DNA from: Amphibalanus amphitrite
Taxonomy: Eukaryota > Arthropoda > Thecostraca > Balanomorpha > Balanidae
DNA: 64,000 nt
Reading direction: 5' to 3'
NCBI RefSeq assembly: GCF_019059575.1
Contig: NW_024881535.1
Coordinates: forward strand, 1,276,001 to 1,340,000
Below the pieces are notes generated by a model that saw only the letters and a list, made by a program, of their open reading frames with translations, had not been told where the DNA came from and ran no database searches. Numbering within the stretch: the first letter of the stretch is position 1; the number at the start of each line of letters is the position of its first letter. This document shows positions 2,966 through 63,332 of this stretch, in pieces. The position numbers were made by a program, and so were the translations under genes.

Positions 2966-2973
2966 TATAAAAG
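2966..2973 (+). promoter_or_regulatory. TATA box of histone H1 gene
   Basis: TATAAAAG lies about 100 bases before the H1 start codon in a GC-rich stretch, which places the transcription start near 2995 and gives a 5' UTR of about 70 bases. The motif is seen directly. Its use as a promoter is inferred from its position. Confidence 0.75.
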
Positions 2974-3066
2974 CCTGTCCTCGGCCGCGCCGGACGTAAA
3001 CGTAAGCCAGCCGCCGTGGTGAGTGGATCACGCTCCGTCTGTGTCGTATCGCTCAGCAAACCAGTC

Positions 3067-3708
3067 ATGTCTGACGACGCTCCTGCTGCGACTACTGCTG
3101 CTGCTGCTGCTGCACCCGCTGCAGCGCCAGCGAAGAAAGGCCGCAAGCCCAAGGAGGGAGGTGCCGCCAAGAAGAAGGCGTCCAAGCCGACCCACCCGCC
3201 TACGCTGGAGATGATCACTAAGGCGATCGCTCACGAGACGGACCCTAAAGGTGTCTCAGTGATGGCTATCAAGAAGTACATCCTGGCGGAGTACAAGGTG
3301 CAGCCGGTGATGCTGCGTCACATGCTGCGGCGTGCCTTCGACGCTGGACTGGCTGCCGGTAAGCTGACTCGACCCAAGGGCCAGAGCGAGTCTCACCTCC
3401 TGTCTGGACGCTACCGGCTGGCCGGAAAGGAGCCCAAGGCGAAGAAGGTGGAGGTCTCTCCCAAGCCGAAGAAAGCGCCCAAAGTCAAGTCCCCTGCCAA
3501 GAAGCCGGCAGCAGCAAAGAAGCCCAAGGCGAAGACCCCGAAGAAGAAACCAGCAGCTGCCGCGGCAAAGAAGGCCAAGTCGCCGAAGAAGGCCAAGTCG
3601 CCGAAGAAGGCCAAGTCACCGAAGAAGGTGAAGACGCCCAAGAAGCCTGCTGTGAAGAAAGCTCTCGCCAAAAAGAAGACCCCCAAGAAGGCAGCGAAAA
3701 AGGCGTAA
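3067..3708 (+). CDS. H1: Linker histone H1
   Basis: This intronless gene encodes a 213-residue linker histone, which binds the nucleosome dyad and linker DNA. The start is the ATG beginning MSDDAPAA. An upstream in-frame GTG at 3016 adds 17 residues that do not look like H1. Residues ~1-38 are an Ala/Pro/Lys-rich head. Residues ~39-118 are the winged-helix globular domain, with THPPTLEMI at its start, VMAIKKYI, LRHMLRRAF and HLLSGRYRLA at its end. The rest is a Lys/Ala/Pro tail with three tandem AKSPKK units and further TPKK motifs, typical CDK-type phosphorylation and DNA-binding motifs. A TATA box lies ~100 bases upstream. No core histone gene is nearby in the window. The 3' region shows an AATAAA and no histone stem-loop, which suggests a replication-independent, polyadenylated H1. 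Confidence 0.97.
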   Translation: MSDDAPAATTAAAAAAPAAAPAKKGRKPKEGGAAKKKASKPTHPPTLEMITKAIAHETDPKGVSVMAIKKYILAEYKVQPVMLRHMLRRAFDAGLAAGKLTRPKGQSESHLLSGRYRLAGKEPKAKKVEVSPKPKKAPKVKSPAKKPAAAKKPKAKTPKKKPAAAAAKKAKSPKKAKSPKKAKSPKKVKTPKKPAVKKALAKKKTPKKAAKKA

Positions 3709-5659: not shown

Positions 5660-7108
5660 TTAGCCTAGCTCAACTGTTGTCAGGGTGAAGACCCCTGAGC
5701 CACGTCGACTGGCCGTCGTTCCATTATCTCCGCCGTTTTCGGGGAGGATCTGCGGGATCTCTCGGCGAGGCGTGACTATGATCCCGGGACCGACCAGGTG
5801 ACGCTGACGGCCACAGAACTCGCTCCCGCCTCTCCACACGTCTTCCTTTCCGTCCTTGAGGCCTTTTGTGATTCCTCCGAAGCCGCTGAGGGACATCGGG
5901 TATCTGCCGTCTCGGGTGTGAAGATCATCGCGGTCGTCGGAACTTCCGTTCGGGTTCTTCATGGCGCCGGTCGCGTTTCTGGCCACCACCTTCTCCAGCA
6001 GATGCTGAAGGGCCTCCACGACGGTGAGCGCCGATACGCCGAGCAGGAGGCCCAGGTTTCCGCCAAAGTCGGCCAGAAAAGAGGTCCAGGTCATCGCGGG
6101 GTGCTCCGTTGTGCTCACGACGTTTCTGCGTCGGAACAGTAGCAGGGTTCGCAGCTCAAAGTCGCTGAAGCGGGCGTCGCGTCGCGGTGTGACATCCAGG
6201 TTCACAGAGGTCGTGGTACACGTGGCACGTGGACAGTCGCAGTCGTCGATGACCTCGTGGAAGCGACGGTGGAACGTGGTGAACTCTTGGAGGGTGTCAC
6301 AAGGTTGCAGAGGGACCATTCCAGAACCCGAACTGGAGGCTGTCTGGATGTCGGAGAGAAGGTCCAGCAGGAAGAACGGCGCGCAGTTGACCTCTCGCAC
6401 GGCTCGCTCCATCCGACAGCGCTCTGGACAGCTCCAGACGTCGGCAGCCTCGGAGCAGGGCGCGTCGGGTCGGTTGAGGCGGCGGTACTCGCCCCAGCTG
6501 ACCGAGACCACCGCCTCGGCCACGCTGGGCCGCAGGTTGTACTGCGTCACGACCACCGGCACGTCCAGGTAGCGGGCCGAGCGAGGAAGCTCACCAGGGT
6601 GGAACATGACAGCGGCCGTGTTGGAGATTTTCCGCAGAGCCACGTTCAGCTGGTGAGAGGAGGCGTGACGCGTCTTCTGGACAGAGGAGAGTGGGTGGCA
6701 GTACGTCATGTACATTCCGCGGTCGTTGACATCCAGTCTGTTCGGGATCGTGTAGTGGATTTCGTCGCTGAGTCCGGCCAGGATTGGTGTCTCCTCATCC
6801 TCGTCAATGCTGTCAAAGTAGAGGATCGTCTGCTGAGCGTCCGGCCGCAGGCTGTTGAACAGGTCCCGCGGGGAGACGCTCTCGTTCCATGCCTCGTGCG
6901 GGATGAAGAACGAGTTACAGAAGCTGATTTTCGGGTTCGGCGGGCCGTTCAGGTATTGAGTAGTCGTAATTAGCTCGCCGGCGATGAACTCGGCGATTTC
7001 TAGGCTCACCAGACAGACGAGTCCTGCTGCGCAGGTAAGCTTCAGCGCCACAAAGACTGTCTTCAGCAGAAGCTGAAGGCACTTTGTGACGCCCGAGTTC
7101 ATGTTCAT
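5660..7108 (-). CDS. DEG/ENaC (pickpocket-like) sodium channel subunit
   Basis: The 482-residue product is a subunit of a trimeric, amiloride-sensitive-type cation channel of the plasma membrane. TM1 is at residues ~15-42 (VFVALKLTCAAGLVCLVSLE), followed by the post-TM1 motif NPKISFCNSFF. The extracellular loop is Cys-rich and includes CPERCRMERAVREVNCAPFF and later CDCPRATC. TM2 (~residues 345-375) carries FLADFGGNLGLLLGVSALT, with the family's G-x-S selectivity-filter triplet as GVS. The cytoplasmic tail is ~100 residues. Only ~13 residues precede TM1 and the usual His-Gly gating motif is absent. The frame stays open upstream of the ATG to a possible acceptor (CCCTCCCAG near 7140), so a first exon is probably missing from this model. 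The gene is convergent with H1. The ligand or stimulus cannot be predicted. Confidence 0.9.
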   Translation of the reverse strand: MNMNSGVTKCLQLLLKTVFVALKLTCAAGLVCLVSLEIAEFIAGELITTTQYLNGPPNPKISFCNSFFIPHEAWNESVSPRDLFNSLRPDAQQTILYFDSIDEDEETPILAGLSDEIHYTIPNRLDVNDRGMYMTYCHPLSSVQKTRHASSHQLNVALRKISNTAAVMFHPGELPRSARYLDVPVVVTQYNLRPSVAEAVVSVSWGEYRRLNRPDAPCSEAADVWSCPERCRMERAVREVNCAPFFLLDLLSDIQTASSSGSGMVPLQPCDTLQEFTTFHRRFHEVIDDCDCPRATCTTTSVNLDVTPRRDARFSDFELRTLLLFRRRNVVSTTEHPAMTWTSFLADFGGNLGLLLGVSALTVVEALQHLLEKVVARNATGAMKNPNGSSDDRDDLHTRDGRYPMSLSGFGGITKGLKDGKEDVWRGGSEFCGRQRHLVGPGIIVTPRREIPQILPENGGDNGTTASRRGSGVFTLTTVELG

Positions 7109-7144
7109 GTCGCCACGTCGGACGTTCAGAGGCGACTGGGAGGG

Positions 7145-8118
7145 TGCGTGGTCAGTTGGATGTTTTAAAAGAACGGTTATCGATTGCTGGTACAGGGCAT
7201 CGTCCTACCGCAAGAACAAGGCGCCATCAACGGGTGCAAAACAGTCAATTTAAAAGACAAGTGGCCTGCGACGCCAGGTCAGCGATACTGCTATATGGCA
7301 CGCCACTTTGCTCATTTGCCTCTGCCAGTTAATGGGCCAGGATGATTGCTGCGGTACAACAACACCTTCACGAGCCTGCATGACAGCCCCCCCCCCAACC
7401 CCACCCCACCCCACTCTCACCCCTTTTGGTGAGAATTGTGAAGCCGTGCGACGTTCACCAATATCATCCGCAGCCATTCATCAGCTCAACTCGTCTAAAG
7501 CGGATGCCTCATCGGCCGACTCAATGTTAAACAATAATGCTGTCGAGCCTGCATATGAAGGTCACTAATTCAAAGCTTGTTAGTTGAATTTAGCAAACAA
7601 GTTAACGTGTGCGTCGTTCGTTAGCTGTCGCCGACAGCCTGCAATGGTGAATAGGGTGATGAGCATGACGACATATAAGCAAAGGCCGTTAGCCATTAGC
7701 ACGTTGCAATGGGAATAGCCCCGAGCCCAACGCTCGATTCTTAACTTTGAACTGAACAGACGTTTGCTTCGAAAAGCGAAACGGGTTGGTAGGTAACTAT
7801 TGCACCAACCTGTTCAATCAAAATAAATTAAAATATTCAGCATGCTTTAACCCAAACAAATGTTGGATTTCATGCTTCGTTATTTGTTATCGGCCTGCGG
7901 CCATGTAATGCGCCTAGGTTCCTATATAGTATATAATAGGTAGGTCGTTGTAACTTGTAGAATTCGTTTTCACAATGCTTCTTTTGTTAGCCAAGATCGT
8001 TTTGTTTGGAGCCGAAACAACTATGTAAGGAAAGCTTTATATTGCCCGGTACTTACTACTTAATACTTTCAACGTTTCGGTTCTGGCCACAGCGTTACCC
8101 CGAACCCGTCCCGGGACG
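7145..8118. other. Intergenic; C-rich tract
   Basis: There is a C/A-rich low-complexity tract at about 7387-7422. A short 5' exon of the channel gene could lie here on the minus strand, but none was recognised. No other feature was seen. Confidence 0.4.
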
Positions 8119-12816: not shown

Positions 12817-15800
12817 ATGGCCGTCACTAAGATAGTGGATGTCGGCACTGCGGATGCCGTCTGGTTCAAATACCTCCTCTCCTGTATAGCAGCGTCCTGC
12901 GCGGAGTTCGGTAAGTCGAGCCCCGACACATGTGTCTAGGCCACACTCCAGCCTGACGGCCAGTGGGCCGCTGGGAGAGTCGCTTCACCTCTGTATATGA
13001 ACCACGGTGGCGAGCGATTTTTCGTAGGGTAAGGTAGTTTTATCGCTTTTGGCTTCGGGAAGGGTGTACAGAATACCTTTTGCATAGGAGCGGAAAAAAA
13101 CGTCATCGAGACTTTCATCCCAGTAACCTGTAAATTGACTTTATTTGAAAACAAATGTTTGAATGCTGGAGAGTGAAGTGCAATATCTATGCTATTGTTT
13201 CAGGTTTCAAGCAGTCACTTGAGACTTGAGCGAGAGATACACTTGTCTCTACTTGTCGTATAAGTAAGGTGTAGTTTTGAAACCTATGAGAGTTTTACCA
13301 GACGTGCCACACGCGTTGTTCATAGCAAATAACGAACTTCAAATAGATTAATCGAAGCCGAAGATCGGCATCGTTTCGAAGAAGATAAGTAAATTACTTT
13401 CACGGCAAAAGTCGCTTACGTCAAGTTATTTCAAAACGATTTATGTAATCAACACATTCCTAGGAAACAAATATCCTTGTCTTGTGAAGTGAGTCCTCAA
13501 CACCTCTTTAGCGTGCCGCCGGCGCGTGTGACTTCCTCGCCCCTAGCTGACCGAGGCGGCTATATGTGTCAACGATTCATTGCCGACACGACCTCATGCT
13601 TGGCCTTTTTCTCCGTGCTTGGCCTTTTCCTTTTTCTCCTCGATACCGATCTGCGCTCTGCTTGTTTCTCGTTTGGTCCGCCGGTGGCGGCCGATGCGCT
13701 GTTGCGAGTGTCTTTGCTGGCTCGTTGGCTGGGCCGTCGCGTTGTTGCGAGTGTTTGGCGATGGTGAGTGTGTCACTGGCTCATTTTCAGCGACCTACCC
13801 GCTGGATCTGACAAAGACCCGGCTGCAGATTCAGGGCGAGTCGGCCGATAGCAAGGTAAGGCTACGGCCCGCCCCACCCCTGTGAACACTGCTGTGAAAA
13901 GCTGTTGGAAGTGTAGGCCCCTGTGTGTTTGTGGTCCTGAAAGCTCATGTACTCGTGTTGTGTGTGTGGGGTTTGTGTCTAGTTTATGGTTATGTGGTTT
14001 AGAAGTACAATTTGTGGGAATTGTGATGGATATTTGGATGGCGTTTTAGAGACATTCGAGTGCAAAGGTTAGGTGTCGTCAAATTAACGAAATGATGTGC
14101 TGGAACATAATAATGATTTGCGTGTCGTTGCGTGGTCCCATTACCTACCATTCGTTTGTGAATACCGTATGTACAATATTGTACATATGTGCGAAGCTAG
14201 CCAGTCTTCTCGAGAAGGACGTTGCCAACATGGAAATCGATGAAATGCTTTAACGCTAGTTTGTTCGCGAACACACATTTCCTTCCCTTCTCCTGCCTCG
14301 GACACAGTTGTCATGTTTGGTAGATGTTTCAAACACTGTTTCGTCTCTCGTCTTAGTTCCTTGTGATCAGTTGAGTTGTTCTCCCCTCATTATAATATGA
14401 AGCCTTCAAAATTTCTTCGCGATCCTACGCCATGCTCGATGGTTGTTTGTCGACGCTTTCGGTGCCGTGGTGGACGATGTTAAATATATGTGGCGACTCA
14501 GTGTGTGAACTTTCGCAAGTTTACTATCGGAACGGAAACCGTCTTCTGTCTTTTCATGCCGATGTCGTATCGTGTCCGTCATCTCTACGCTAACTGTGAC
14601 TACACTGACTAAAAGTGCTGTCTTCTGTTGCAAGTGTCCTGCTGTCCGCTGACTCCATTTTCTGACTGCCCCTGCCGCCCGCTCCCCGGCAGGTGCCGTA
14701 CCGCGGTCTGTTCAGGACCGGTCTCGGAGTGGTTCGAGAGGAGGGTATACTCTGTCTGTGGCAGGGTATTACCCCCGCCGTCTTCCGACATGTCATCTAC
14801 ACCGGTGTGAGGATGAACGGATACGAGTGGATGAGAAACCAAGTCCGTGAGGAGGGCGCCTCGCTGCCCGTGTGGTAAGACGACAGGGGGGTCGGGGGGG
14901 GGGGGGGGGTGGAGAGGGGAAGAAGCCTAGAGTTTTCTTTTTGCCTTGCGAACTGTGATGTTTAAAAAAATTGTATTGGCTGTTGTCATTTTATTCGAAG
15001 TGAGTAAGACGCCGGCGGTCGTTGTTTCTAGCTTCAGCCAGCTGGGAAGGTGTGTGCGACATTGGGAACCGTTTGAAGGAACTCTATGTTACCATTACGT
15101 AACAAAAGAAGATGGGACCGCCTGATGGTGGAATGGATTCACATGTCATATAGCTGATCATGAACGTTTCTTGTGGCTGGTGACTCTACTGAATGTGACT
15201 CTCTGTCCCAGGCAGGCGGCGTTAGGGGGCCTGCTGGCTGGAGGTACCGGATTACTGTACTGATGTATCTGTACCTGTGTCTGTACTTATGTGTCGGTGT
15301 CTGACTCTATCCCAGGCAGGCGGCATTAGGGGGCCTGCTGGCTAGAGGTACCGGATTAGTGTACTGATGTGCCTTTGTCTGTGTCTATCCCAGGCAGGCG
15401 GCATTAGGGGGCCTGCTGGCTGGAGGTACCGGATTACTGTACTGATGTGCCTTTGTCTGTGTCTATCCCAGGCAGGCGGCGTTAGGGGGCCTGCTGGCTG
15501 GAGGTACCGGATTACTGTACTGATGTATCTGTACCTGTGTCTGTACTTATGTGTCGGTGTCTGACTCTATCCCAGGCAGGCGGCATTAGGGGGCCTGCTG
15601 GCTAGAGGTACCGGATTAGTGTACTGATGTGCCTTTGTCTGTGTCTATCCCAGGCAGGCGGCATTAGGGGGCCTGCTGGCTGGAGGTACCGGATTACTGT
15701 ACTGATGTGCCTTTGTCTGTGTCTATCCCAGGCAGGCGGCGTTAGGGGGTCTGCTGGCTGGAGGTACCGGATTACTGTACTGATGTATCTGTACCTGTGT

Positions 15801-18112
15801 CTGTACTTATGTGTCGGTGTCTGACTCTATCCCAGGCAGGCGGCATTAGGGGGCCTGCTGGCTAGAGGTACCGGATTAGTGTACTGATGTGCCTTTGTCT
15901 GTGTCTATCCCAGGCAGGCGGCATTAGGGGGCCTGCTGGCTGGAGGTACCGGATTACTGTACTGATGTGCCTTTGTCTGTGTCTATCCCAGGCAGGCGGC
16001 GTTAGGGGGTCTGCTGGCTGGAGGTACCGGATTACTGTACTGATGTGTCTGTATCTGCGTCTATACTTATGTGTCTTTGTCTGTGTCTATCCCAGGCAGG
16101 CGGCGTTAGGGGGCCTGCTGGCTGGAGGTACCGGATTACTGTACTGGTGTGTCTGTATCTGTGTCTGTCTGTACTTATGTGTCTTTGTCTGTGTCTATCC
16201 CAGGCAGGCGGCGTTAGGGGGCCTGCTGGCTGGAGGTACCGGACAGCTACTCGCCTCGCCGGCTGACCTCGTCAAAGTTCAGATGCAGATGGAGGGACGG
16301 CGGCGACTGCTCGGACAAAAGCCCAGGTGAGACAACTCTGATGTCATGGTCCCGCCACCTCAGAACGGTGGGATTGTGACTAAAAGTAAATGGAAAATGC
16401 GAGCTATTAACACTGGTGTTTTGTGCTCGATTTAGTGATGGCAGGATATATTGTGTTTGTGTTGAGAAGAACCACACTGACTATATGCTCTAAAAGGTGT
16501 AAGGTTTAGAATTTAGAAAACACTGAACTGGGGTGTCAATAGCAAGTCCCTTGCTGCTGTTAGGCTCTGTATCTTGGTGCACGACGTGGTGGCTTGTATA
16601 CCTTATCACACCAACCATCATGCTTTCACTCAGTGAGTCTCCAGAGTGTTAAGTGCTCATTCTCACACTCCTACTGTCTTTTACAGAGTGCTGAGTGCGC
16701 GGCACGCGTTCCAGCGTATTATCAGCGAGGGCGGTGTCCGCAGCTTATGGAAGGGCTGTGTTCCCAACGTACAGCGCTCGGCACTCGTCAACCTCGGCGA
16801 TCTCACCACCTATGACTCTGTCAAGGGCCGTCTGGTCAGAAATACGTCACTGGGGGACAACCATCTGACGCATTTTCTGGCTAGGTGAGCTTTGGTGGTC
16901 ATGCTAGAGGAGGGTTCGGTGTGCCGCCGGCCGGTTAGCTCAGTTGGTTAGAGCGTCGTGCTAATAACGCGAATGTCGTGGGTTCGACCCCCACACTGGC
17001 CATTCGTTTCGACCTCGCGTCGACGTTTTCAATCTCTGGCCCCTGGCTTTGTGAAACGGTCCAAGAGGCTGCTACTTAGTTTTATTGTGTGAACCGTTTA
17101 TTTGTGATCGATCGGGGCGTTAGACGCACCTTAGGCGTGTCTGGTGTTGCTAGACAAGCTTTGATTTCGTGAACGCAATATTTATATCAAACGGAGCAGT
17201 CTCAAGTCATACCAAAATTGATTTTTATCCCACTTGCCACCGTTTTACAGCTGTGTTCAGATTCAGATTCAGATTCTTTATTCCGGTGAGGCTAATGTGT
17301 ACTTCTAATCGCTGATGTGTTTCGCCATGATTCCCGCGCCACCCTTCTGACGTGTTTCCGCTTTGTCCGACAGCGCGTGCTCGGGTCTGGTCTCTGCGAC
17401 ACTGGGCACGCCGGCCGACGTGGTCAAGACCCGTGTCATGAACCAACCCACCGACCATCATGGGAGGTGAGTGCGTGTCACAATTCACAGAGGTCAACTG
17501 CGGAGGCGAGAGTTACGGGGATTAGTGTCACATATCCGAACACTACAGGGATATTGTGTGCGAGTCATGACAGGAGTCAACCAGGAATATTATAGTCTGT
17601 TCTATATCAAGCTTGCAGTCGGAGTTTCTTCGGCAGATCGCTCCTCCGTTCAAGAATTTGCGTCTTAAAATGTAAGAGCTGTATATACAGAAATCACGCA
17701 CTGCTTTCAGCAGGGCACTTCGGCTGCAAACTTGAAACGGAACAGAGTATAGAACTGCAGTGCACAAAGTCACACAGCCGATCACAAATGAGTTTTCTTG
17801 CACTCTTGGTTACTGTCACTCCTGTTCCGGTACTTTTTTAGTTCCCATGAGTTCTTATTTTTGTTTACGCCTACGTACGCCCTCGTCCAGTGTTGGTGTC
17901 TTCCGATGCTGACCTGCGTCCTTTCTCCGCCCCCCAGGGGTCTTCTGTACCGGAACTCGATCGACTGTTTCATCCACCTGGTGCGTTCCGAGGGCCTCCT
18001 GGCCATGTACAAAGGCTTCCTGCCCTGCTGGATGCGCATGGCCCCCTGGAGCCTCACCTTCTGGTTCACCTATGAGAACATGCGGAAGTTCTTCGGCACG
18101 CCCACCTTCTAG
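12817..18112 (+). CDS. Ucp4: Mitochondrial carrier, UCP4 type (SLC25A27-like)
   Basis: Seven coding exons join in phase to 309 residues: 12817-12910, 13791-13855, 14693-14874, 16204-16326, 16687-16884, 17374-17466 and 17938-18112 (TAG). All have GT-AG borders, and the first exon extends 5' to an acceptor at 12807. The product is a six-helix inner-membrane carrier with the three signature motifs [22 protein letters not shown] and [18 protein letters not shown] and [15 protein letters not shown] are typical of UCP4. UCP4-group carriers are linked to proton leak or anion exchange, and the substrate here is not provable from sequence. Intron 3 contains eleven extra copies of the exon-4 acceptor and exon start, and intron 5 holds a tRNA-Ile gene. 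Confidence 0.95.
14885..14910 (+). repeat. Poly(G) tract in intron 3
   Basis: A run of G with few interruptions lies just downstream of the exon-3 donor (14875). G-runs close to donors can act as intronic splicing signals, but no role is shown here. Confidence 0.6.
15212..16246 (+). repeat. Twelve-copy array of exon-4 start with splice acceptor
   Basis: The block CCAG|GCAGGCGGC(G/A)TTAGGGGG...GGTACCGG occurs 12 times, with acceptor-to-exon junctions before 15212, 15316, 15394, 15472, 15576, 15654, 15732, 15836, 15914, 15992, 16096 and 16204. Spacings are 104, 78, 78 repeated, which gives a higher-order unit of 260 bp present about three times, then 104 and 108. Only the twelfth copy continues into the conserved carrier sequence ([11 protein letters not shown]). 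Copies 1-11 lead to a stop a few codons on (GGTGLLY or, in some copies, GTGLVY, then TGA). Each copy keeps a pyrimidine-rich CTATCCCAG-type acceptor. Confidence 0.93.
16929..17002 (+). tRNA. tRNA-Ile (anticodon AAT)
   Basis: The 74-nt cloverleaf has acceptor stem GGCCGGT/ACTGGCC, A-box TAGCTCAGTTGG, anticodon stem TCGTG/CGCGA with loop CTAATAA (anticodon AAT) and T-arm GTGGG-TTCGACC-CCCAC. There is no intron and CCA is not encoded. A T-run (17026-17029) follows. It lies in sense orientation in intron 5 of the carrier gene. Confidence 0.93.
17251..17292 (-). repeat. Non-LTR retrotransposon 3' tail fragment
   Basis: Read on the minus strand the fragment ends GGAATAAAGAATCTGAATCTG, a poly(A)-signal-like AATAAA followed by AATCTG tandem units. 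This is the usual tail form of CR1/SINE-like retroposons in invertebrates. Only the extreme 3' end is present. Confidence 0.5.
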
Positions 18113-21367: not shown

Positions 21368-24300
21368 ATGAGTGAGAACGATAATCACCTAACCATCGAG
21401 TGTCTCCACGCGGGAATATACGAGCTTCATCTCTCCTGGCGGCCGAAGTCGCCGGAAACTGAACCGGTGCCCGATCAAGAACGCAAGAATGTGGAACCCA
21501 CGTCGGGGAAAGACGCTGAGAATGCTGAGATCCAACCCTCAAGAACCGCTACTGATACCACCAAAGCGCAAACTTTAGAACCGAAAATCCTGTCCGCATC
21601 CACCAAGACGAACCACCAATACGACCAAGCTGAGGCCAACCCAACAGTCATCGATCAAACAATACCAAACGAGCAGCCCCTCACCCCTGAAAACCTTTCC
21701 CCACCCGCCTCTCACCCTCCCCGCCCGTTGTACGCCCTGGAGATGTTCGAAGCGCCGCCGGTAGCTGGCTGGACACGATGCTACTATGGCGCAGGGACGA
21801 ATTGTTGGCTCAATAAGTTGAAGCCGAACGTCCCCCATAGGGTCAGAGTGAGGAGTGAGGCGGGAGTGAGTCAGGTGAGGAGCGAGGACGGGATGGGAGG
21901 AACGGGAGCGGCGAAGCCGGCATTGTCTTGGTGAGAGCATGGCTTAGGGGACACAGCCTCACAGGGACGGAGGTGCAAACTTGTGTTTTTGTCAGATAGG
22001 AGGGAGCAGGCTTCGATGATCGGGGTATATGGTTCGTTGATACGGCAGGTCTTCCGGTGAGCATGATTATGTTGCGCGGATTGTGATAGTGAATACGGTG
22101 CACTACATGAGTCAGTGCTATGGATTAGTACCTAGATTTTGAGCTTGTAACGCGACCAGCAATGACTCAGGCGAAATGTGCGTCTATTTCTCTCCCGATA
22201 ACCACCCCTCTACATCCCCCCCCCCACCTCGGCTCTCCCTCAGACGTTCACCTTCAGCACGCTCCCGGCGCCCGTCTCCGTCTCCGATCTCCACCGGGCC
22301 GTCCTGCTGGACCGTGTGGAGCGCGTGGAGACGATTCTGACGCGCCGGCCGCGTGCCGTCAGCGCCGTCAGCGCGTACGGCCTCAGCGCGCTGATGGTGG
22401 CGGCGCGCGAGGGGTTCCGATCCATGAGCTCCCTTCTGCTGCGGCGAGGAGCCGATGTGAACCAGAGCAGTCAGGGGGCCGGCAAAACAGCGCTCATGTT
22501 CGCCAGCTTCGCGGTAAGAACAGCCGGGAGGCACTCTGGAGTTGAAAGCTTGATGCATCGTTCCTGTTAGGCTGAAAAGTTTGAAAGCGTAGGAACAGAA
22601 ATGGATCAGTACAATAACTTAGGAAGGCCCTCTTAGCGATCCAATGGCTGATGACGTTTTAATTGCTAACTTAGAAACCCAGTGCACGTTTCAAGATTAC
22701 GCATCTCCCTCCCCTCACCAATTATACTCTTCTTCCTCTCGACCTCCTCTCACCCTCCCACCTCTACCTCTCCCGCAGGGTCATCTAGACATCGTCGACT
22801 TGCTGCTCTCCGCCGGCGCCTCTGTGACCTCCCAGGACCGCTCAGGACGGTCCGCGCTGCACCACGCGGCCGATGGGGGCAGCGCTGCCGTGGTTCGTCG
22901 CCTGGTGGCCGCTGGAGCACCGCTGGAGCAGGCCGATTCCGAGGGCTGGAGTCCGCTGATGAGAGCTGTGATGTTAGGAGGTGAGAGGGAGGGGAGAAGA
23001 GGGAGGGAGGAGAGAGAGAGAGAGAGATGGAGAGAGAAAAGGAGGAGGAGATGGAGGGAGGGTGAGAAATAAAGAGAAGACAAGCGTTTAATCGACGCGG
23101 TGCACGGTATTAATAAAATGGGACGATGCGTTCACTTTGATAAATAGCTTTCCAGTTATCTGATATGCACCCGTCGTCAACCGATCGCTAGCTCCAGCCT
23201 CCAGCTCCTGATGAATGAGCCCCAACTAAGCACTCCTCGTCGGCCTCACCAGGCCCAGTCAGTAACTTGGTTTCTACCACTCCCTTTCCGTAGGTCCGGT
23301 CAGCACCCTGGTCGAGATGGGCGCTCGGTCGGACGGTTCAGACGGCCGCGGTCGCCAGCTGCGCCGCCTGTCACCCTGTCCGCTGCGCAGTGCCGAGCTG
23401 CTCAGTGTGTGGCGCCGCAGCGCCCTGGTGCTGCCTCCGTGGCGACGCAGCAGCTCTCAGCAACCGGAGTGCAGTTCTCAGCAACCGGCGGCTAGCAGCT
23501 CCCAGCAACCGGCGCAAAACAGATCACAGCAACCGGCGCGGAGGGACTCTCAGCAGCCAGTGCGGAAGGACTCTCAGCAACCGGCGGTTAGCAGCTCGCA
23601 GCAACCGGCGCGGAGCAGCTCCCAGCAACCGGTGCGGAGGGACTCACAGCAAATGGCACGCAAGGACTCAAAGAAGTTAGTGCGAGGTGACTCAAAGCAA
23701 CTAGTGCGGAGGGACTCCCAAAAACCGGTGCGGAGCGACTCACAGAAACTAATGCGGAAGGACTCCCAACAACCGTCGGTATCGGCCGGAGAGCCAGAAA
23801 GCTAGGAAGTAGGGAGAAAAGCAAGAGGTGGCGGCTCTTGAGGGCTCCGGTAGTGAAAATCACTTGAAGGTGAGCTTTTCTAGGTAGTTGGTAAGCATTA
23901 GTGAGGAAGGGAGTCAAGAAGGTATGTTAGTGGTGGTAGGTGAGCGCTCTGATGTTACTGAGCATCGCATACTGAGGTCTGCTTGGATGGGCGAGATACT
24001 CAACTCGTGACAACATAGTGCACACTGCACACATTTCGATAAAATCGGCCTACCAACACCAACTCCGCGGCATCAGTCGATCAGTCAGTTTCCCTTCATC
24101 TACCTGTCAAACCCTCAAAATTGACATGTTTTCTAACCGCCCCGAACTCACAACTGTCATTCATTGACGTGTCTGTAGCACGTAAAAATCGATTTTACGT
24201 CAAATTTAGTGTGCGACTCAGCGCGGTTGGTTAGGTAATCGTTCGCAGTGGAGAGCTTGGGGTGGGACGGTCTGTGTTGTTTTCGCTTTTCAAAAAGAAC

Positions 24301-27188: not shown

Positions 27189-35458
<8,270 letters not shown>

Positions 35459-42283: not shown

Positions 42284-44170
42284 TGACTTTCGCCAAAGTT
42301 AATACATAATCTGACCGTTGATGACCTTTGGAGCCCAAGCTCCTCACCCGTGATCAAAACATCCGAGACAATAGTAGGTAAATAGTTTGCAAATATCCAC
42401 CTAATTGGTCATTGACGCATTTTTGCATTTATCTTTATTCGTGCGACGAATCAGTACGACCGGAAATATGCAAAGCATATCTTTTTTAGGTAATTTAGAG
42501 ATACTTATTGCAGGTAGCACTCGTTGCGCTTGCCGTAATGGTCACTTCAGTGTGCAATAGATCACATAAAAATCCACCGCGCCCGCCTTGATGAGTGTTG
42601 GTGAACTCCGCTCACAGATCATAAATTAGTCAGCGTCTTGCAGTTACATAAAACAGCCGTGTCGGTTACATCATTTCATCACACCGGCCGGTCAGCAGCT
42701 CTTTTCCTGGCAGGCTGACCGGCCGAGCCTGAGCCTCCCAGCGTCACAACTTTCACTCGAGCACAGGACGATCGACAGTTTGACCGTCCCCTGGGGCATT
42801 CGGGCCTCCTCCCAGCATTAGTGAGAGCGGAATCGGCCGGGGGACCAGGCCGGACCCGGGGCCTCCTTCGCATCTTCAGCGCGGAACACAGACCTGTGAC
42901 CGGTTCCTGGGGCCCGAGGGAGTCCGGGACACGTCAGTCCTTTCGCTTTCAGAGTGTGGGTATGGAGGAGGGATGGGATGATGATGATCGATCTGGTCGT
43001 TCTGGTCACACTAGTGCTGGAGGGTGTGGATTGGATGTAATGAAGGAGAGAGGAAGAGCAAAACGGGTTTTCTTAGCGGAACTGTAAGGGAATTGGATTA
43101 GACGGTCAGATGAGAAAACCGGCTTACTGACTTGAGATAAGTGTTACTTTTAGCAGGTTCGCTGCACAGCAAAGGCAAAACTTTAGATCTGTGATGTAAC
43201 GCCTAAACAAAGATGAATCGTCCTGGACCCCAGAGCTCATGTCCGGCTGCTTCGCTTTGGCGAAAAACACGCGGACTTGTAGCAAAGTATGAAGAAAGCA
43301 TTTTATAGGCAGATATAGCTTACAGTTGAAAAAGTACCTACACGATGAAATAAACTGCTAAGGAACTGTAAAGCGTTTCTTTATCACGAGTCACGACAGC
43401 CGTTTATGACTCCGTACCATGCGTTAAAATCATAGAATTATCACGGTAACATTGTTTTGACAAATGGGACGTTTTTGGGGTCTATTTTATTCCGAGAATA
43501 TCTTGACGTACCTCCGGGATATTTCATTTTCATTGGCACCCTTTACGACCCATATCAGCAGCCAAACGCATCACGTCTTCTTCAAAAGCTCTGACTGGCA
43601 TTTCTTCTGCCCTAATGATGTCCGTAGTGCCCAGCATCTGTGGTTCGTATGACTAACTAGCATGGTCAGCGAAAGGAGATGAATGCTAAGCTGTAGAAAT
43701 TTGGCAGCTGGGACATACGCGTCACCTGTGGCAGATGCTTTCAATGACCGGCCAAATCCCTTTAGACGGGATGGAGAAAATGGTGACAGGTTTCGGTGTC
43801 ACTCCGTTAGGTTCGTGGCATGGCTATGGAACTCAGCACATTAACGAGACGTTTTAAGGCCATGTAGTCGGGAACTTAAAAACTTTAGATTATCCATTGA
43901 GCAAGTTTTGGAATAAGTAAACACAAAATTTAGTTTATAATTATTTACACTTCTCCGTTTACGGTGAAACGAAAGTGGCGTTAAACAGCTCAATGTGAAC
44001 AGTAACCGCTGTTTCACCAGGCTATGTTCTAACGAGTCACGGAGAGCTGCTCTACAAACTGCAAGTCATTCGCCACGGCCGACCTACTTTGAATACCACC
44101 GACTGAAAGCGAACAAAATCGAGCTGAGTACCGTCGGGCCATCAACCACACTGCTGCCGACTCACAGTCC
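42284..44170. other. Intergenic, nothing recognised
   Basis: The stretch is GC-rich at about 42690-43010 with short open frames on both strands that match nothing I know. Otherwise it is featureless. Confidence 0.35.
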
Positions 44171-44294
44171 GACTTACACCTCTAATGGCAATTCACGGTC
44201 CGACTTACACCTCTAATGGCAACTCACGGTCTGACTTACACCTCTAATGGCAACTCACGGTCTGACTTACACCTCTAATGGCAACTCACGGTTC
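44171..44294 (+). repeat. 31-bp tandem repeat, four units
   Basis: GACTTACACCTCTAATGGCA followed by ACTCACGGTCT repeats with exact 31-bp spacing from 44171, 44202, 44233 and 44264. Units differ by single bases, which indicates recent expansion. Confidence 0.9.
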
Positions 44295-51895: not shown

Positions 51896-52404
51896 GTCGT
51901 GTGGTGTGTCAGAGGAATTGCATAGTCATCATTAGATGTGTGTGCTGGGAGTGCGTTAGTTTGCACAAAATGTTTGGTGTTTGGACATGACACCAGCGCA
52001 AGCTAATGTAACGACGACCGGGAGACCAAAGCTGTATCCAGAGCTACTCGTAGAAGAAGAAGATAATTTACACCCTCTTGAAATGACTCGAGACGCGAAA
52101 AACTGGATGTGTTTTCGGAAATACGGAAAGAAAGACAAATTTGAATCGGTCCGATTCGTTTGACGATCAGCGACCAGTCGAGCAAATCTAGCCGCTGGAC
52201 GTGCGTTTGTTGACGTATTTTGTCCGTTGGTGTTATTAATTAATCCAAAGTCACTCTTGCCGAGGAGAAACCAGGAGAAACAGATAAAAGTACGAGATAA
52301 AAGTACGGCTCTGCGAAATATAGGTAAGACTAGTGAATACCCTCCAACAGTGGAAATGTTGGCCTTTACTCCACTCGCAGAGCCGAGCCAAGCGATTTGG
52401 TGCT

Positions 52405-53065
52405 ACTGTCCTGTGACTCACTGCAGTCTCGGTTATTGGTGTTACTGACCTGTAATACTCGTACACTGCATTCTCGGTTATTGGTGTAAATGTCCAGTGG
52501 TTCACTGCAATCTCGGTTATTGGCGTTAATGTCCTGTGATATTGCAGTCTCAACAAGTGGTGTGACTGTCCTGTGACACGCTGCAGTCTTGGTCATTAAT
52601 GTTAGTTTCCTGTAACATATTGCGGTCCCGGCAATTTGCATTACTGTCCTGTGGTACATTGCAGTCTCTGCAGGTGTTACTGGGCTGTGATATATTGCAG
52701 TCCCGGTTATTGGTGTTTCTGACTTAGTTGACTTACTGCAGTCTCGGTTATTGGTATTACTGCCCTGTGATACACTGAAGTCTGTGTTGTTGGTGCTATT
52801 GTCCTTTGATGCAGTCTCGGTTATTAGTGTCACTGTCCTGTGATACACTGCAGTCTCGGTTATTGGTGCTACTGTCTCGTGAAGTATTGCAGTCTCCGTT
52901 AGTGATACTTCTGTCCTGTGGCTCACTGCAGTCTCGATTGTTAGTGTTAGTCTCTACTAATTGCAGTCTCAGTAATTGGTGCTACCGTCGTGTGATACAC
53001 TGCAGTCTCCGTTATTGGTGTTAATGTCCTGTGACGTATCGCAGTCTCGGTTACCGTCATGTGAG
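52405..53065 (+). repeat. 38-39-bp minisatellite, about 17 units
   Basis: Each unit carries CACTGCAGTCTCGGTTATTG followed by GTGTTACTGTCCTGTGATA. About 17 units are spaced 37-46 bases apart, mostly 38-39. Because 39 is a multiple of three, long minus-strand frames reading ITETAVYHRTVTP arise. Unit-length drift breaks the frame, so this is not taken as a gene. Confidence 0.92.
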
Positions 53066-60356: not shown

Positions 60357-63332
60357 ATGGAGGAGCTACTGGCTGCTAGGTCGCGTCTCCGCACAAAGGC
60401 TACTAAAGCGTGCAATGATCTCCGGGCATACAGGGAAGGAGATCGGAAAGCGCTAGACCCGGACCAGCTTGCCCTAAAACTGCATCATGTGGAGAAGATC
60501 CATGCTGAGTTGCAGGGCTTGCAGGTCCAGCTGGACAAACAGGGTCAAGCCGATGAGACAAATCATGTTCAGACTCTTGAGGATGAGGCTTTCCTCGGTT
60601 CTCGCCTTTTGACTCGCCTCGAGAAGGCAGAGGAGGCCCAGTTCAGGGCAGAGTCGATGAAGGCAGCTGGTAGCGCCGATTTGAAATCATCTCTCACCGT
60701 GGCGATTCCCACATTCGATGGTGATGTGATGAGATGGCCCGAGTTCTGGGAACTGTTTTCGATTGCTGTGCACGACAACCAGTACTATGCCAACGTGCAG
60801 AAATTCGTGGTCTTAACCCGCGCCGTGCTGGGGGGGGGGGGGGGCGTTTTTACGCCCCCCCTCAGGTTTTTCGCGAATATCTCAAAAACGGCGGCGCGCA
60901 GCGCCGCCGTTTTTGGTACACGTGTTCCTACATCATTTCCGCACATGTTGTGAAAATTTCAGACCTAGGCCGTTCAAGGTCAGGTCACCAGGTCACGTCA
61001 AGTGACCTTACCTCAGAAAAAGTTCAAAGGCTCGCTATAGCTACACCGACTGAACGATCACTTTGAAACTTTCAGCGATTGATATGAGTAACAGTATGTA
61101 TAAAATGTTTATCTCGGATTTTTGATATCTGTGACCTAAGGTCAGGTCAATTTTGCGACCTCTCCATTATAAGTCAATGGGAGAAAATTGAAATGCGCCT
61201 CTTTTGGACGAATATCGTTCAAAACGCTCTCAAACATCGGTTCATAGGTAAACATGACACACTGAATAGGAAAAATGCACCTGTGACCCCTCTGTGTGCC
61301 CCTGAGGTCATCTCAGGTCATGAACGGTCGCCAGCAGTTTTTTGGCTATAACTTTTGATCGAAACGTGCTAGAGCGGTGAAAACACGTCAGATGTGTTCA
61401 GCTCGACGATACGGATCGACTGATATGCAACATGACCCTTTTCGGTCAGGTCATGACCTTGACCTGAGGTCAAATTTTCAAAATGACCTTTCAAGGTCAA
61501 CAAATAGTTCATTCGACGCGTCTCGACGAGAGGAACACGATGCTGGCAAAAGTAATGTCATGGCGCTTATGAGTCAAAAGTTATTGACGAAAAAACGTTT
61601 TTCGTAAAAACGGCTATTTTTGGAGTTTTTGCCCTCTGGAGGCTAAACCGTTGACCTGAGGTCAAATCTGAGAACATTACTCAGAAAGGTCTGTAAAAGG
61701 GCTATCGAATGCGCTTTTCCGCGGCGCTGTAGCTCTATCGGTTCCCGAGATAGCCGTTGGCAGTTTCCAAAATGTTGAAATAGTCAACATTTTACCTTTG
61801 GTGACCTCTGGTGACCTGACCTTTGACCTGACCCAAAAAATGACCGAAGTGTTTTCGTCCTTATTTTTGACGCTCTTTCGATTGCCGCTTACCGCGTGTC
61901 GCTACGTGGCCCAGGAGCCGAGTTAGACGGGGGGGGGCGTGAAAACGCCCCCCCCCCAGCACTCGGCGGAAAGTTCAGGCCACCAGCACGGCGCGGGTTA
62001 AAGTCGCATCTTGCCGGAGCGGCATTGAGGGCCATCCAGGGCATCCCAGTCACGGGTGATGGGTATGTGCAGGCGGTGTCAGCTCTGAAAGCGCGATTTG
62101 ACCTCGAGAATGTGCGACGGGAGACTCTCTTGAAGGAGCTGATGAACATGTCATCAGTCCGCCACGGTGACTTGAAGGTCATGCGATCCTTCATAGATCA
62201 CCTGTCTGCGCACACGAGAGCTCTCAGCACTCTGGGTGTCTCCTCAGAGAGCCTATCCAGCCTGCTGCTGCCCATGGTGAAGGGCAATATCCCGGAAGAC
62301 TGGCGTCTGGAGTGGGCCCGGCGATCGAGTCACCACTTTGATGACTTTCTGGTGTTTTTGAAGGAGGAAATTCGGGTCAGAGAGCTTGCTAGGGGCCCGA
62401 ATAGTGAATGCTCTGCTGTTGACCCACCAGCAACGTTCTCGGTGACCACCAGAGACCTCGACTCTGAACACCTGGCCAGGGAATGTCTGGGCAGTCCGTG
62501 TGCTGAGCGTGGCCGCCAGCATCACTCGCTGCTGCATGATGCGGAGCTTGGAACGCAGCATTCACCCTCAGCAGTTTCTGAGTTGAGCCCTGATGCTGAA
62601 CCACTCCAGCCTCCTGAGCCTCCTGCTCCGGGTACTTGTGCAGAGGCTCAGACACACGGTGTTGAGCTGTCCAGTCGTCACCGATACAATGTCAGCTCTA
62701 CAGAAAAGAGCTTCTTGCAGACCTCTGCTGTTGTGGCTGCAGGTCCCAATGGTCTGAAACCGACATGCGGTCCCCTTGTTGGAGGATATCACGCCTCCGA
62801 ACTTGACATGAGGAGCACAGACATGCTGTGCTCACCACCCCCAACTGCTCAGCCGCCTCGGTTGCCGTCTGAGATCCAGACGGCTGATGATTTCCGGGGC
62901 GGTGAGGTTGACGTCCTCGTAGCGGCTGATGACGTGCATCAGGTCGTCCTACAGGATCAGTTGGAGGCTGATGGGCTGAGAGCCATCGATACTATTTTTG
63001 ACTATGGGCTGAAAGGTGGAGACAATGATGGTCCCCACACGAGCCAGTGCCCTTCTAGTCGGCCCGATGCTGCTGACTGGGACGCGAGCCCAACTGGCAT
63101 TCATGACAAGGAGATGTGCGACTCACACTCCAACCCGCAGCTGATGAGTGAGAAGCTCCACGAGCCGCCCCCGATCTGGGGCTCTGACGAGAGGCCGACA
63201 TATGGCCGCCGCTCCCGGCCGTCGTGGTGCCGTGAGGCGCCCTCGATCGTCGGCCTCCGACCCATCCCGTCGGTGCAGAGGAAGCACCCCGGCGGGATCT
63301 GGCGGTGGCATCGGTGGCGCCGTCGGGGGTGA
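60357..63332 (+). pseudogene. BEL/Pao-type gag-like frame interrupted by a transposon
   Basis: The first part (60357-60812) has a coiled N-terminal region and then the DUF1759-type start IPTFDGDVMRWPEFWELF, typical of BEL/Pao gag. It stops at a TTAA where a DNA element (60817-61997) is inserted. The same domain resumes on the other side in the matching frame, with features such as RFDLENVRRETLL and a degenerate CCHC-like region near RQHHSLLH. The downstream frame runs to 63332 without protease or reverse transcriptase. The frame is therefore broken by the insertion, and the element lacks pol. Both coding halves are otherwise open, so the insertion looks recent. A host-domesticated gag is an alternative. 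Confidence 0.75.
60817..61997. mobile_element. TTAA-flanked hairpin-ended element, copy C (1181 bp, uninterrupted)
   Basis: Inverted ends CCCGCGCCGTGCTGG and CCAGCACGGCGCGGG are flanked by TTAA (60813-60816 and 61998-62001). Hairpins with matching inner stems GGCGT/ACGCC and G/C runs lie at both ends (60830-60861 and 61929-61957). The body is rich in AGGTCA-type motifs, including TTCAAGGTCA at 60973-60982. No transposase. The insertion target lies inside a gag reading frame. Confidence 0.92.

What the first reader, a model, noticed from the sequence alone, without database searches (positions are those of the whole stretch)
15212..16326. Twelve tandem splice acceptors with cloned exon starts in a UCP4 gene
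The start of coding exon 4 with its CCAG acceptor is present 12 times at 78/104-bp spacing in a 260-bp higher-order unit. Only the last copy leads into a functional exon, and each decoy leads to a stop within a few codons. The spliceosome must skip eleven almost perfect decoys or the gene loses output, so array length could tune expression or allow a truncated isoform. I know of no described case with this layout.
Basis: seen in the sequence. Interest (0 to 1): 0.78.

Follow-up and report, generated by a model that had tools for sequence, protein, structure and literature searches.

The report
Splice-site minisatellite in a UCP4-like gene
A short DNA segment holding the end of one intron and the start of the next exon is present twelve times head-to-tail in a mitochondrial carrier gene; this kind of repeat is already known from lancelets as a 'mirage', and it probably leaves splicing largely intact.

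Summary
CCCAG|GCAGGCGGC occurs 12 times, first exonic bases 15212 to 16204, spacings 104/78/78 three times, then 104 and 108; the three 260-bp blocks differ by 0-1 bases. The gene is intact: seven exons give 309 aa when copy 12 is the acceptor, with carrier and UCP matches.

First, copy 11 reaches no stop: its TGA is TGG and it lies 108 bp (3 x 36) before copy 12, so its frame stays open into exon 4, adding 36 aa. The same base makes a donor-like CTG|GTGTGT, giving a possible 51-nt in-frame exon and 57-nt intron. Second, the layout is described: amphioxus 'mirages' repeat an intron's 3' end with the exon's start, vary in length, and by RT-PCR seem not to disturb splicing (PMC3087553 passages); they were proposed as a route to new introns.

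Most likely this is a mirage-type minisatellite spliced mainly at copy 12. An incipient exon at copy 11 is possible but untested; its open frame is within chance (7.9% of simulations).

The parts
15202..16243 (+). mirage-type minisatellite: 12 copies of [3' end of intron 3 + first 40 nt of exon 4]
15212..15471 (+). 260-bp block 1 (104+78+78), copies 1-3
   Evidence: identical to block 2
15472..15731 (+). 260-bp block 2, copies 4-6
15732..15991 (+). 260-bp block 3, copies 7-9
   Evidence: 1 difference from blocks 1 and 2
15992..16095 (+). copy 10, 104-bp unit with a diverged spacer, frame closed by TGA
16096..16203 (+). copy 11, 108-bp unit: TGG where the other decoys have TGA, and a spacer 4 bp longer than that of copy 10; frame open into exon 4 (+36 aa)
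16096..16146 (+). possible 51-nt in-frame cassette exon inside copy 11, ending at CTG|GTGTGT
   Evidence: donor score 7.41 against 7.85 for the exon 3 donor; of the GT listed in 15190-16330 the only others above 2.96 are 15194 (4.72, left of the array) and the exon 4 donor (10.87); no RNA evidence
16147..16203 (+). possible 57-nt new intron made only of repeat spacer
   Evidence: inferred
16204..16326 (+). copy 12 = true coding exon 4 (123 nt), donor GTGAGA
   Evidence: joined protein intact and aligned without a gap to UCP2 across this junction
12817..12910 (+). coding exon 1 (from the ATG)
   Evidence: read from sequence, joined
13791..13855 (+). coding exon 2
14693..14874 (+). coding exon 3, ends in phase 2 (TG|G)
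16687..16884 (+). coding exon 5
17374..17466 (+). coding exon 6
17938..18112 (+). coding exon 7 with stop

Best explanation
The array is a mirage-type minisatellite. A segment with the branch-point region, pyrimidine tract and AG of intron 3 plus the first 40 nt of exon 4 is repeated in tandem (shown by the sequence). It grew by unequal exchange or slippage, lately in 260-bp blocks (inferred from three blocks with 0-1 differences). Only copy 12 is followed by the rest of exon 4 and its strong donor. Splicing probably uses copy 12 most of the time because exon definition favours the acceptor nearest the donor, giving a 123-nt exon (inferred; exon definition is recalled knowledge). Use of copies 1-10 would give a premature stop and probably decay of the mRNA. 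Use of copy 11 would give an in-frame protein with 36 extra residues, or 17 if its own donor is used. Array length is expected to vary between individuals, with little effect on output.
For: Twelve copies with sharp edges: unique intron to the left of copy 1, the rest of the exon to the right of copy 12. All 12 copies keep CCCAG|G, and the 40 exonic nt differ from copy 12 by 0-2 bases. Copies 2-12 (11 of 12) keep a yUnAy branch-point-like A at -27; copy 1 has its nearest at -55. Acceptor scores are 10.82 for 8 of 12 copies, 6.3 for three and 7.09 for copy 1; five other acceptors of the gene score 5.17-10.69. The gene is intact: seven exons, 310 codons with the stop, no internal stop; PF00153 on each of the four exon translations tested; UCP2 best PDB match at 3.4e-40. 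The same layout in amphioxus BflGb6 seemed to splice regularly by RT-PCR and differed between haplotypes, 6 and 3 repeat units (passages of PMC3087553).
Against: No RNA or population data here, so the use of copy 12 and the expected length variation are not shown. The decoys are as strong as the true site by a recalled, human-like matrix, so appreciable mis-splicing cannot be excluded. Assembly error cannot be tested without reads. The mirages in the papers seen are all from lancelets, and the source organism here is unknown.
Confidence: 0.8

Rival explanations
1. Incipient exon and intron (can hold on top of the best explanation). Copy 11 is spliced as a 51-nt in-frame cassette exon (donor CTG|GTGTGT at 16146), and the 57 nt of spacer before copy 12 are removed as a new intron; or copy 11 is used as an alternative acceptor adding 36 aa. 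This would be intron gain caught in progress.
For: Copy 11 alone of the 11 decoys lacks the stop. Its distance to copy 12, 108, is a multiple of 3; that is also true of copies 2, 3 and 4, which do have the stop. It has a donor score of 7.41, reached by 82 of 4153 GT on the + strand of the window. The phase fits (TG|G on both joins). An intron gained by duplicating an intron end plus exon start is documented in potato RdRp (passages of PMC4974935), and recruitment of a mirage unit as an exon was proposed for amphioxus globins.
Against: With 3 random substitutions and one random indel from the copy-10 spacer, 7.9% of 200,000 simulations give an open frame, before allowing for the number of decoys; so it may be chance. 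The 17-residue insert repeats the start of what I take to be the third transmembrane helix and would probably damage the carrier (inferred). The donor has T at +4 and T at -2, away from the consensus.
Confidence: 0.13
2. Regulatory decoy array: the number of copies sets how much pre-mRNA is lost to nonsense-mediated decay, so array length tunes UCP4 output.
For: 10 of 11 decoys lead to a stop after 17 residues, upstream of further exon junctions, so decay would follow if they were used (established rule, recalled).
Against: Mirages in amphioxus seemed not to interfere with regular splicing. Near-identity of the 260-bp blocks is explained by recent expansion without selection (inferred).
Confidence: 0.06
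3. Assembly artefact: a shorter array inflated during assembly.
For: Blocks 1 and 2 are identical and block 3 differs by one base. One amphioxus mirage was aberrantly assembled in a draft genome.
Against: The 78- and 104-bp types and copies 10 and 11 differ from each other, so several real copies must exist. An array of about 1 kb is short for long reads.
Confidence: 0.08

Closest known systems
Mirage minisatellites of amphioxus: globins BflGb6 and BflGb9 (passages of PMC3087553); Adh3 (Canestro et al. 2002, seen only as cited there)
   Same: Tandem repeats spanning an intron-exon boundary; in BflGb6 the 3' end of an intron plus the 5' part of the exon; units 81-100% identical; many units keep splice signals
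   Different: Here 11 decoys plus the true copy, against 6 and 3 repeat units in BflGb6 (authentic section apparently named apart); a 260-bp higher-order block; 78/104/108-bp units instead of 150-160 bp; a UCP-type gene; organism unknown
Lancelet PGBD5 repeats, and troponin C mirages as cited there (passage of PMC3902484)
   Different: Few and imperfect copies (3 x 108 bp); the authors note that the PGBD5 duplications are less perfect than the mirages
Intron gain by tandem duplication in potato RdRp (passages of PMC4974935)
   Same: Duplicated segment crosses the same kind of boundary (intron 3' side + exon 5' side); branch site, tract and AG inherited from the parent copy
   Different: There a duplication with an established new intron whose GTAAG donor was a cryptic site recruited from the upstream exon; here 12 copies, a donor-like site in the spacer, and no RNA evidence
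Intron polymorphism by repeat expansion in Cryptococcus CNN00420 (passages of PMC2395259)
   Same: Repeat expansion in a gene changes its set of splice sites
   Different: Whole, EST-supported introns are multiplied there
Internal tandem repeats in human duplicated genes (passages of PMC2812944)
   Same: Variable repeats in genes that can activate cryptic splice sites and form new introns
   Different: Repeats contained within exons

Membership tests
mirage minisatellite | tandem repeat unit spans an exon-intron boundary | tested here: met
   12 copies of intron 3 end + 40 nt of exon 4
mirage minisatellite | repeats keep AG or GT splice signals | tested here: met
   CCCAG|G in 12 of 12
mirage minisatellite | homogenised inside, diverged at a cluster edge | tested here: met
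   blocks 1-3 differ by 0-1 bases; copies 10 and 11, at the exon side, have diverged spacers; copy 1, at the intron side, is not diverged within its unit
mirage minisatellite | copy-number variation between haplotypes or cells | not testable with these tools
   one haplotype only
mirage minisatellite | regular splicing not disturbed | not testable with these tools
   no RNA data; the reading frame is intact through copy 12
mirage minisatellite | found in a cephalochordate (where the term arose) | not tested
   organism unknown; window G+C 49.7%; the genome search did not complete
UCP4 (SLC25A27-type carrier) | mitochondrial carrier repeats | tested here: met
   PF00153 on 4 of 4 exon translations tested, of 7 exons
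UCP4 (SLC25A27-type carrier) | closest to UCP4 rather than UCP1-3 or UCP5 | tested here: inconclusive
   best PDB match is UCP2, but no UCP4 is among the 10 matches; the UCP4 name rests on recalled sequence features
intron gained by tandem duplication | new intron shown in RNA | not testable with these tools
   only a donor-like site and an open frame in copy 11

The most novel reading that the evidence does not exclude
The array is a working intron-gain intermediate: one base difference in copy 11 both removes the poison stop and makes a donor, so copy 11 is now spliced at some level as a 51-nt in-frame exon, followed by a 57-nt intron made wholly of minisatellite spacer, while ten sister copies remain closed.
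Probability: 0.13. Interest if true: 0.6.

Novelty: new member of a known kind. Interest (0 to 1): 0.33.

Why it matters
It is a long example of a splice-site-bearing minisatellite with its history still readable. If copy 11 is used in RNA, it would let intron gain by tandem duplication be watched at one locus, with the closed copies as controls. If not, it would show that the spliceosome tolerates 11 near-perfect acceptors upstream of the real one.

Tried and rejected
Hairpin masking of the AG: a 39-nt stretch at copy 12 (CCCAG plus the next 34 nt) can form a stem of -19.7 kcal/mol, but 39 of 500 dinucleotide shuffles are as stable (z -1.6), and the longer stretches folded for copies 12 and 4 give the same structure, so it cannot tell true from decoy; rejected.

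Decoy mini-exons through GAG|GTACCG, present in all 12 copies: donor score 2.96, reached by 686 of 4153 + strand GT in the window; too weak.

Same event elsewhere in the gene: 81-nt queries around five other acceptors and the ATG region found only themselves at E 0.1.

Other tandem arrays: seven that I picked from the 47 TRF rows were scanned on both strands. Six have no acceptor scoring above 6; 52397-53053, of about 17 units, has three, at 6.2-6.6.

Relatives of the protein: no confirmed match in viral contigs (2 pattern stretches) or genome contigs (8 pattern stretches), as expected for an animal gene. Structured RNA at gathering threshold: only the tRNA. Selection for the open frame of copy 11: not supported (7.9% in a simple simulation).

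In one search the exon 6 donor was mis-placed by one base (score -17.51); one search places it at 17466|GTGAGT. Splice matrices are recalled human-like frequencies, not fitted to this organism. Earlier descriptions were sought, and UCP4 splicing (10 of 976 listed, none opened). The original mirage paper (PMC117041) is not held.

Full report
CCCAGGCAGGCGGC occurs 12 times on the + strand of the window and not on the other. Spacings are 104, 78, 78 three times over, then 104 and 108. Tandem Repeats Finder gives period 260, 97% matches, score 1804. The three 260-bp blocks differ by 0, 1 and 1 bases in the three pairwise comparisons.

The host gene is intact. Seven exons (12817-18112) join to 310 codons, the last a stop, so 309 aa, with no internal stop when copy 12 is the acceptor of exon 4. 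Four of the seven exons were given to Pfam and all four match Mito_carr. The joined protein of exons 3-7 matches UCP2 and UCP1 structures best, and the alignment to UCP2 runs without a gap across the exon 3/4 junction. The name UCP4 rests on recalled features; no UCP4 was among the 10 PDB matches.

Each copy carries 40 nt of exon 4 (to ...GGTACCGGA), and each of the 11 decoys is followed by a spacer of 38, 64 or 68 nt. To the left of copy 1 lies intron sequence not repeated elsewhere in the window beyond a 13-base match, and to the right of copy 12 the rest of the exon. Copies 2-12 keep a branch-point-like A at -27; copy 1 does not. Seven of 11 decoys are identical to copy 12 for at least 21 nt upstream of the splice point. 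By a recalled human-like matrix these score the same, 10.82; copies 2, 5 and 8 score 6.3 and copy 1 7.09; the five other acceptors scored in the gene lie at 5.17 to 10.69. So the decoys are good acceptors by sequence.

Read on from exon 3, copies 1-10 reach TGA after 17 residues. Copy 11 does not. It has TGG in place of TGA, and its spacer is 4 bp longer than that of copy 10, which makes the distance to copy 12 108 bp, a multiple of 3. Copies 2, 3 and 4 also lie a multiple of 3 from copy 12, but they have the stop. The frame from copy 11 therefore runs through copy 12 into exon 4 with 36 extra residues. The same A/G difference makes CTG|GTGTGT at 16146, with score 7.41 against 7.85 for the real exon 3 donor; 82 of 4153 GT on the + strand score as high. 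Copy 11 could thus be a 51-nt exon in phase on both sides, followed by a 57-nt intron. A simple simulation opens the frame in 7.9% of trials, so this is a lead, not evidence of selection.

The layout is known. [quoted passage not shown] A passage of PMC3902484 reports similar repeats in lancelet PGBD5 and cites troponin C. The globin authors proposed that a mirage unit can be recruited as an exon, giving a new intron. In potato an intron arose from a duplication of just this kind of segment, with a donor activated from a cryptic site of the upstream exon (passages of PMC4974935).

I therefore take the array as a mirage-type minisatellite, spliced mostly at copy 12, probably through exon definition from the strong exon 4 donor (score 10.87; the mechanism is inferred). 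Eleven decoys and the 260-bp block go beyond the 6 units reported for BflGb6, but the kind is the same. The organism is unknown, because the genome search tool did not complete; if it is not a lancelet, this extends the range of mirages. RNA and several individuals are needed to go further.

Noticed in passing
16929-17002 (+): A tRNA-Ile (anticodon AAT) gene lies in the intron between coding exons 5 and 6 of the same gene, sense strand (Rfam 65.5 bits).
   Followed up: partly
44160-44292: 4.3 copies of a 31-bp unit, 96% matches; one donor-like site on the - strand scores above 6. I did not look for a gene there beyond the ORF list.
   Followed up: partly
52397-53053: 17 copies of a 39-bp unit, 67% matches; three acceptor-like sites (6.2-6.6) on + and one donor-like site (8.6) on -.
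   Followed up: partly
23441-23775: 24-bp repeat inside an open frame (SQQPVRRD-like repeats) downstream of ankyrin-repeat sequence at 22202-22567.
   Followed up: no
61827-63332 (+): DUF1759 match, which I recall from BEL/Pao-type retrotransposons.
   Followed up: no
2971-3708 (+), 5660-7204 (-), 27189-28697 (-): Linker histone, ASC sodium channel and MBT-repeat frames, pointing to an animal genome.
   Followed up: no
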